Shown here in pieces: positions 27,902-29,032 of a stretch of DNA of 64,000 bases (its first letter is position 1; each line of letters opens with the position of its first letter). This DNA is from Ectothiorhodospiraceae bacterium. Lineage in GTDB: Bacteria; Pseudomonadota; Gammaproteobacteria; Nitrococcales; Aquisalimonadaceae. The position numbers and the translations under genes were made by a program. The notes below the pieces were generated by a model, which did not search any database, was not told the origin of the DNA, and saw nothing but the letters and a program-made list of their open reading frames with translations. The stretch spans positions 248,001 through 312,000 of the forward strand of contig JAFIFU010000001.1 of assembly GCA_020831885.1 (NCBI GenBank), given 5' to 3'.

Positions 27902-28546
27902 ATGGGTACCCTGACAGGCATTTTCGGCGGTACGTTCGATCCCGTCCATAACGCTCATCTGCGGGTGGCGTTGGATGTGGTGGAGGCGGGCGCACTGGTA
28001 GAGCTGCGCCTGATCCCCTGTCACATCCCCCCGCACCGGGAATCCCCGGCGGTGGACGCCGCCACCCGCCTGCACATGCTTCGCATGGCGGTCCGGGGAG
28101 AGCCCCGCTTCGTGGTGGACGATCGTGAGTTGCGTCGGGATACGCCTTCCTGGACCGTGGATACCCTGCGTACCCTGCGCGCCGATTTTCCGGATCGGCA
28201 TTTCTGTCTGTTGATGGGGTCCGACAGCTTTCGGGGGCTGCCCACCTGGTCACGCTGGCGTGAACTGGGTGAATTCGCGCATATCGTCGTCATGCAGCGG
28301 CCCGATCCGGGGCGTCCCGTGCCGGACGCCCTGGCCGAGTGGCTGCGGGGCAGAGAGGCGGACGGCTGGGGGGCGCTGCGCCGTGAACGGAGCGGTCGGG
28401 TGCTGTTCCAGCCGGTGGCCCAGTTGGCCATCTCCGCCACCGACATCCGCGAGCGCCTGGCCCGGGGCGGCTCGATCCGCTACCTGGTGCCGGACGCGGT
28501 ATGGGATCATATTCAGCAGGAAGGTCTGTACCTGACGCCATCCTGA
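27902..28546 (+). CDS. nadD: Nicotinate-nucleotide adenylyltransferase
   Basis: A 214-residue nucleotidyltransferase that makes nicotinate adenine dinucleotide from NaMN and ATP in NAD synthesis. The nucleotide-binding motif GGTFDPVHNAHL is at residues 9-20, with the C-terminal ISATDIRERL segment of the family. Its ATG follows the proA stop with no spacer, implying translational coupling. Confidence 0.95.
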   Translation: MGTLTGIFGGTFDPVHNAHLRVALDVVEAGALVELRLIPCHIPPHRESPAVDAATRLHMLRMAVRGEPRFVVDDRELRRDTPSWTVDTLRTLRADFPDRHFCLLMGSDSFRGLPTWSRWRELGEFAHIVVMQRPDPGRPVPDALAEWLRGREADGWGALRRERSGRVLFQPVAQLAISATDIRERLARGGSIRYLVPDAVWDHIQQEGLYLTPS

Positions 28547-28573: not shown

Positions 28574-29032
28574 GTGCGCCCGGCGTCGGGTGTGGAGAGG
28601 CGATACGGATTCTGTAACAGCGGCGAAGGGCCGCGGAGGTGTGTCATCAGCAAGGATCAGAAAACGGGGGCGCCGGCGCTGTCACTGGACCAGTTGCAGA
28701 CACTGGTACTGGACGCGCTGGAGGAAATCAAGGCGGTGGAACCGGTGGTGTTGGATGTGCGCGGGAAGACCGGAATCACGGATCTCATGGTGGTGGTCTC
28801 CGGCACCTCCAATCGGCACGTGAAGGCGATCGCCGATACGGTGGTGGAGCACGTGAAGCAGCAGGGTCTTCGCCCGATGGGGGTGGAAGGTGAAGAGGCG
28901 GCCGATTGGATTCTGGTGGACCTGGGGGACGCCGTTGTGCATGTCATGCTGCCCCGGGTCCGGGAGTTGTACCGGCTGGAGCGGATCTGGGGCGTGGATG
29001 CCATGCCCGATTCCGGGGAAGAGCGTGCCTGA
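28574..29032 (+). CDS. rsfS: Ribosomal silencing factor RsfS
   Basis: A member of the RsfS/YbeB/Iojap family, which binds uL14 on the 50S subunit and blocks subunit joining during starvation. Family segments VLDVRGKTGITD, SGTSNRHVKAIAD and GVEGEEAADWILVDLGD are present. The start is uncertain: canonical GTG codons exist at 28574 and 28592 but have no ribosome binding site. A strong GGAGG (28635-28639) stands six bases before an in-frame ATC at 28646, giving a natural-looking 128-residue protein beginning (M)SKDQK. The true gene may therefore start at 28646. Confidence 0.88.
   Translation: MRPASGVERRYGFCNSGEGPRRCVISKDQKTGAPALSLDQLQTLVLDALEEIKAVEPVVLDVRGKTGITDLMVVVSGTSNRHVKAIADTVVEHVKQQGLRPMGVEGEEAADWILVDLGDAVVHVMLPRVRELYRLERIWGVDAMPDSGEERA

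What the first reader, a model, noticed from the sequence alone, without database searches (positions are those of the whole stretch)
28574..29032. rsfS appears to start at ATC
A strong GGAGG lies at 28635-28639, six bases before an in-frame ATC at 28646, and translation from there would give a normal N-terminus (M)SKDQK. The only canonical in-frame starts, GTG 28574 and 28592, have no ribosome binding site and add a poorly conserved segment. ATC/ATT starts are rare, so this is either an unusual start or a sequence error (ATG read as ATC).
Basis: partly seen in the sequence, partly recalled or inferred. Interest (0 to 1): 0.5.

Follow-up and report, generated by a model that had tools for sequence, protein, structure and literature searches.

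The report
Conserved AUC start codon in rsfS
The gene for a ribosome-silencing protein appears to begin at the very unusual start codon AUC in most members of one bacterial family, just as the gene for initiation factor IF3 does, which suggests that the two proteins that keep ribosome halves apart could share one translational control.

Summary
In detail: rsfS (PF02410) has GGAGG at 28635-28639 and an in-frame ATC at 28646-28648, and its canonical in-frame starts (GTG 28574, 28592) have poor ribosome binding sites. A sequence error is effectively excluded. Of the 14 genomes held of the same family, 11 in four genera have ATC-AGC in frame at the gene start, 5-6 nt after GGAGG, one of them a complete single-contig genome (G003). 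In two of the 11 (G006, G012) no ATG, GTG or TTG lies between the in-frame stop and the ATC. The other three, one clade, have GTG. None of 127 loci outside the family shows the pattern. In the same family infC (IF3) starts at ATC in 13 of 13 genomes where it was found, so AUC is evidently usable there. New here: a hairpin with compensatory base changes ends 0-2 nt before the GGAGG in 10 of the 11 ATC genomes (chance rate 15%); it also occurs in an ATG-using genus of the order. Most likely rsfS starts with fMet at AUC, rescued by a near-perfect Shine-Dalgarno, and is held low by IF3 start-codon discrimination, as for infC and Streptomyces sigR. The start is strongly supported; IF3 control is inference, untested.

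The parts
28646..29032 (+). rsfS coding sequence from the AUC start (128 aa plus stop), (M)SKDQKTGAP...
28646..28648 (+). ATC proposed start codon, followed by AGC
   Evidence: Conserved as ATC-AGC in 11 of 14 family genomes
28635..28641 (+). Extended Shine-Dalgarno GGAGGTG; GGAGG ends 6 nt before the ATC
   Evidence: duplex energy -13.3 kcal/mol
28620..28634 (+). Leader hairpin GCGGC-GAAGG-GCCGC directly abutting GGAGG
   Evidence: hairpin at this place in 10 of 11 ATC genomes, with compensatory changes
28574..28645 (+). Rejected N-terminal extension from GTG 28574 or GTG 28592
   Evidence: Poor SD (-6.2, -1.7); segment not conserved and these GTGs absent at these places in relatives
27902..28546 (+). 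nadD, upstream gene (ends 99 nt before the ATC)
   Evidence: ORF list; identity recalled from gene order and sequence, not searched

Best explanation
rsfS in this organism, and in most of its family, is translated from an AUC codon read by the ordinary initiator tRNA (anticodon CAU), giving fMet-Ser-Lys-Asp... A near-perfect Shine-Dalgarno (GGAGGTG) 5-6 nt upstream compensates for the weak codon. Because AUC mispairs at the third base, IF3 should destabilise the initiation complex, so RsfS synthesis is kept low and rises when free IF3 falls, in parallel with IF3's own gene, which also starts with AUC here. A hairpin abutting the SD probably keeps the SD free of upstream pairing or tunes 30S loading. 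Shown by comparison: conserved ATC and SD, lack of canonical alternatives upstream in two genomes, infC ATC, hairpin. Inferred: actual initiation, IF3 repression, the hairpin's role. The confidence given is for the AUC start; for IF3 control it is about 0.55.
For: ATC-AGC with GGAGG 5-6 nt upstream in 11 of 14 family genomes across four genera (g1 3/3, g2 5/5, g3 2/2, g4 1/4). G006 and G012: 0 canonical starts between the in-frame stop and the ATC. SD energy -12.5 to -13.9 in the 11, -9.5 in the three GTG genomes. In g2, SD and start are 100% identical in 10 of 10 pairs, whereas the upstream 57 nt are 69-89% identical, with 1- or 2-nt gaps in 9 of 10 pairs, against no gaps downstream. infC starts at ATC in 13 of 13 genomes with an infC match (14 searched). 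Initiator tRNA with CAT anticodon in 5 of 5 genomes searched. Outside the family 0 of 127 loci have an Ile codon with SD -12 or better at or upstream of the profile start, and all have a canonical start. Precedent: IF3 represses the GTC start of Streptomyces sigR, and infC there is ATC (PMC5472188, passages). E. coli rsfS itself has a minor UUG start (PMC10917681, passages).
Against: No expression, proteomic or ribosome-profiling data. Nine of the 11 ATC genomes have some canonical in-frame codon upstream, all with much weaker SD. G007 has ATG 9 nt after the ATC (SD energy -9.9, but 14 nt from GGAGG by count), and G012 a TTG 33 nt after it (-10.1). ATC conservation is partly expected from high-GC codon choice if it were an internal Ile codon. 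Three genomes of genus g4 use GTG and so do without AUC. pcnB, recalled as the other E. coli AUU gene, shows no ATC start here. E. coli rsfS translation peaks in exponential phase and does not respond to polyamines. Nothing here tests IF3.
Confidence: 0.9

Rival explanations
1. Sequence or assembly error: the codon is really ATG.
For: A single base change would give a standard start; many family genomes are draft assemblies.
Against: The same ATC in 11 separate assemblies of four genera, one a complete single-contig genome (G003).
Confidence: 0.01
2. Translation starts upstream at a canonical codon (GTG 28574 here) and the ATC is an internal Ile codon.
For: The frame is open upstream for 33 codons here; 9 of 11 ATC genomes have some canonical codon upstream.
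Against: G006 and G012 have none; upstream codons sit at different places with weak SD; indels of 1-2 nt upstream of the SD among close relatives; a near-perfect SD would lie inside the coding region by accident in all 11.
Confidence: 0.05
3. Translation starts downstream at a canonical codon (TTG 28694 here) and the SD-ATC motif serves something else.
For: Downstream canonical codons exist in every family genome; G012 has a TTG at +33 with SD energy -10.1, G007 an ATG at +9.
Against: The first downstream codon lies at +9 to +60 in the 11 ATC genomes, mostly with poor SD, and starts at +48 or later fall inside the first conserved RsfS segment, which E. coli RsfS (recalled) keeps.
Confidence: 0.03
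4. AUC is used but is only drift: a weak codon tolerated because the SD is so strong, with no regulatory role of IF3.
For: A clade in g4 lives with GTG; other members of the order use ATG or have a strong-SD TTG.
Against: Retention across four genera although one base change gives AUG, and the parallel with infC in the same genomes.
Confidence: 0.35

Closest known systems
infC (IF3) with AUU in E. coli and AUC in Streptomyces
   Same: Non-canonical Ile-type start codon with a functioning SD; the product is a ribosome anti-association factor; infC of this family also starts at ATC.
   Different: infC is autoregulated by its own product; rsfS would be controlled in trans. Regulation not shown here.
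sigR of Streptomyces (GTC start, IF3-repressed; PMC5472188)
   Same: Conserved non-canonical start in one lineage, in a gene other than infC, under IF3 repression.
   Different: GTC instead of ATC; experimentally shown there, inferred here; no alternative long isoform is claimed here.
rsfS/ybeB of E. coli (UUG start; PMC10917681)
   Same: Same gene, also a weak start codon.
   Different: UUG counts as canonical for IF3; AUC does not. The SD-adjacent hairpin was not examined in E. coli.

Membership tests
RsfS (ribosomal silencing factor) | Match to PF02410 over the curated cut-off | tested here: met
   108.2 bits against 21.6
RsfS (ribosomal silencing factor) | Binds uL14 on the 50S subunit and blocks subunit joining | not testable with these tools
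   Known for E. coli and S. aureus (PMC13246957, passages)
IF3-sensitive genes with non-canonical starts (infC, sigR) | Start codon other than AUG/GUG/UUG, conserved in relatives | tested here: met
   11 of 14 family genomes
IF3-sensitive genes with non-canonical starts (infC, sigR) | Shine-Dalgarno at workable spacing | tested here: met
   GGAGG 5-6 nt before the ATC in 11 of 11
IF3-sensitive genes with non-canonical starts (infC, sigR) | Initiation at that codon shown by protein or reporter data | not testable with these tools
   None available
IF3-sensitive genes with non-canonical starts (infC, sigR) | Expression falls with IF3 excess and rises in infC fidelity mutants | not testable with these tools
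   Shown for sigR in PMC5472188 (passages), not here

The most novel reading that the evidence does not exclude
In this family the two anti-association factors, IF3 on the 30S and RsfS on the 50S, are under one IF3-sensed translational circuit: both genes start with AUC, so a fall in free IF3 raises both, and rsfS adds a conserved SD-abutting hairpin that makes AUC initiation efficient enough or adds a second control.
Probability: 0.45. Interest if true: 0.75.

Novelty: new member of a known kind. Interest (0 to 1): 0.6.

Why it matters
Very few genes outside infC are known to use IF3-sensitive start codons, and gene finders that assume ATG, GTG or TTG cannot call them. A conserved AUC start in rsfS would add a gene whose product is functionally paired with IF3: both are raised together in an E. 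coli rimM mutant (PMC13246957, passages). It gives a concrete, testable case of cross-regulation between subunit anti-association factors, and corrects the N-terminus of RsfS in most of a family.

Tried and rejected
Sequence error, upstream GTG start and downstream TTG start were considered and rejected. A frameshift from the out-of-frame GTG at 28639 was rejected: in G012 that frame meets a stop after five codons (read from the sequence). pcnB as a second AUC gene: no ATC start seen; its start looks like GTG with weak SD, and in 4 of 13 the script found no hallmark residues, so this is loose. A special initiator tRNA: none seen; the one match in each of 5 genomes has CAT. 16S tail: 0 of 5 genomes matched although 9 of 14 control genomes did, so the anti-SD used is the recalled standard one. 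Genome-wide search for other AUC starts by motif: one search used a wrong spacing (N3 instead of N4) and says nothing about this; with the right spacing gave 19 matches against 16 for the reversed control. The one other long frame without a canonical start upstream (L225) lies out of frame inside a longer ATG ORF and has no Pfam match. The script failed (wrong residue pattern) and was replaced; one search read 14 minus-strand loci on the wrong strand and was replaced. The class sample is 88 loci; most are best-scoring listed rows among the 351 genomes with a match, not a random draw.

Full report
What is there. The ORF 28574-29032 encodes RsfS, between nadD (27902-28546) and the next gene (rlmH by recalled gene order). 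GGAGG lies at 28635-28639 and an in-frame ATC at 28646-28648. From the ATC the protein has 128 residues. The two canonical codons upstream, GTG 28574 and GTG 28592, have SD energies of -6.2 and -1.7 kcal/mol, against -13.3 for the ATC.

Chance. In a crude ORF set of the window, 3 of 724 internal Ile codons reach -13 or better. In the whole genome GGAGGTGNNNNATC occurs 19 times against 16 for the reversed control. So one such site alone proves little.

Relatives. The family holds 14 genomes, all with rsfS. Eleven have ATC-AGC in frame at the gene start with GGAGG 5-6 nt upstream: g1 3 of 3, g2 5 of 5, g3 2 of 2, g4 1 of 4. SD energies are -12.5 to -13.9. G006 and G012 have no ATG, GTG or TTG between the in-frame stop and the ATC. 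G007 is the least certain, since an ATG follows 9 nt later. The other three of g4 have GTG with SD -9.5 and form one supported group in a PcnB tree of 13 genomes (1 change, 100/100; G013 lacked a full PcnB match and is not in it). The root of that tree is not known and G012 does not fall with the other g4 genomes in it (weak fork), so the direction of the change is open. Two of the ATC genomes appear to be Ectothiorhodospiraceae MAGs by the record titles of L032 and L033, whose contig lengths equal those of G002 and G001.

Upstream is not coding. Among the five g2 genomes, SD plus start are identical in 10 of 10 pairs; the 57 nt upstream are 69-89% identical with gaps of 1-2 nt in 9 of 10 pairs; downstream 60-nt blocks show no gaps. 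Part of that upstream stretch is the end of nadD in some of them.

Outside the family. In 127 loci (39 of the order, 88 of the class) no Ile codon at or upstream of the profile start reaches SD -12; 126 have a canonical start within 60 nt and the last has an ATG at -66. Looser flagging marked 21 of these 127, mostly for CTG, internal or weak-SD codons.

Positive control. infC was matched in 13 of 14 genomes (not in G012), and in all 13 an ATC stands just after an in-frame stop with no canonical codon between, the frame continuing GCC/GCT; in G004 and G007 a GTG follows two codons later. So AUC initiation is evidently in use in these organisms, as reported for Streptomyces infC (PMC5472188, passages). 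The initiator tRNA carries CAT in 5 of 5 genomes.

A second feature. A hairpin ends 0-2 nt before GGAGG in 10 of 11 ATC genomes (not G004), and in 0 of the 3 GTG genomes. At 1500 GGAGG sites in the window and fetched loci, the rsfS sites themselves included, the rate is 15% for any such hairpin and 7.5% at -5 kcal/mol or better. Sequence differs while pairing is kept: with the register fitted per genome, pairs 1, 2, 3, 5 and 7 show changes on both sides, some only through the uncertain G007; individual z-scores are modest, -0.9 to -3.0 in the ten. The same arrangement is found in 10 of the 11 loci of genus g9 (family f4) that have a GGAGG near the start, and g9 uses ATG, so the hairpin is not tied to AUC. 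Here it is 28620-28634. In longer windows the minimum-energy fold does not always keep it.

Mechanism. The start is best explained as AUC initiation, compensated by a strong SD. That IF3 restrains it is inference from infC and from sigR, where IF3 excess lowers and fidelity mutants raise expression (PMC5472188, passages). An in vitro study found that IF3 disfavours weak third-base pairs, including AUU read by CAU (PMC10158994, passages); AUC with CAU was not in the passages seen. E. coli rsfS has UUG (PMC10917681, passages), and IF3 and RsfS rise together in a rimM mutant (PMC13246957, passages).

Prior reports. No paper describing an AUC or AUU start for rsfS was seen in the listings of searches of one open-access library; most subscription journals and arXiv are not covered, including a 2020 arXiv list of genes preferring non-AUG starts that I saw only as a reference in PMC9845219.

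Verdict. Real, conserved, not an error; a probable new member of the small class of genes with IF3-type non-canonical starts, pending experiment.

Noticed in passing
28620-28634 and L003, L004, L006, L011, L013, L016, L018-L020: Hairpin abutting the rsfS Shine-Dalgarno, kept by compensatory changes; also in an ATG-using genus of another family of the order.
   Followed up: partly
L065-L077: infC starts at ATC, not ATT as in E. coli, in 13 of 13 genomes with a match in this family.
   Followed up: yes
L079, L086, L089 (family f4, genus g14): rsfS there has a TTG with SD energy -12.2 near the gene start, so the true start and codon are uncertain.
   Followed up: no
L158-L170: A conserved stretch upstream of pcnB (around GTATTATAC...CTCAAGCACGG) that may be a promoter or leader element.
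   Followed up: no
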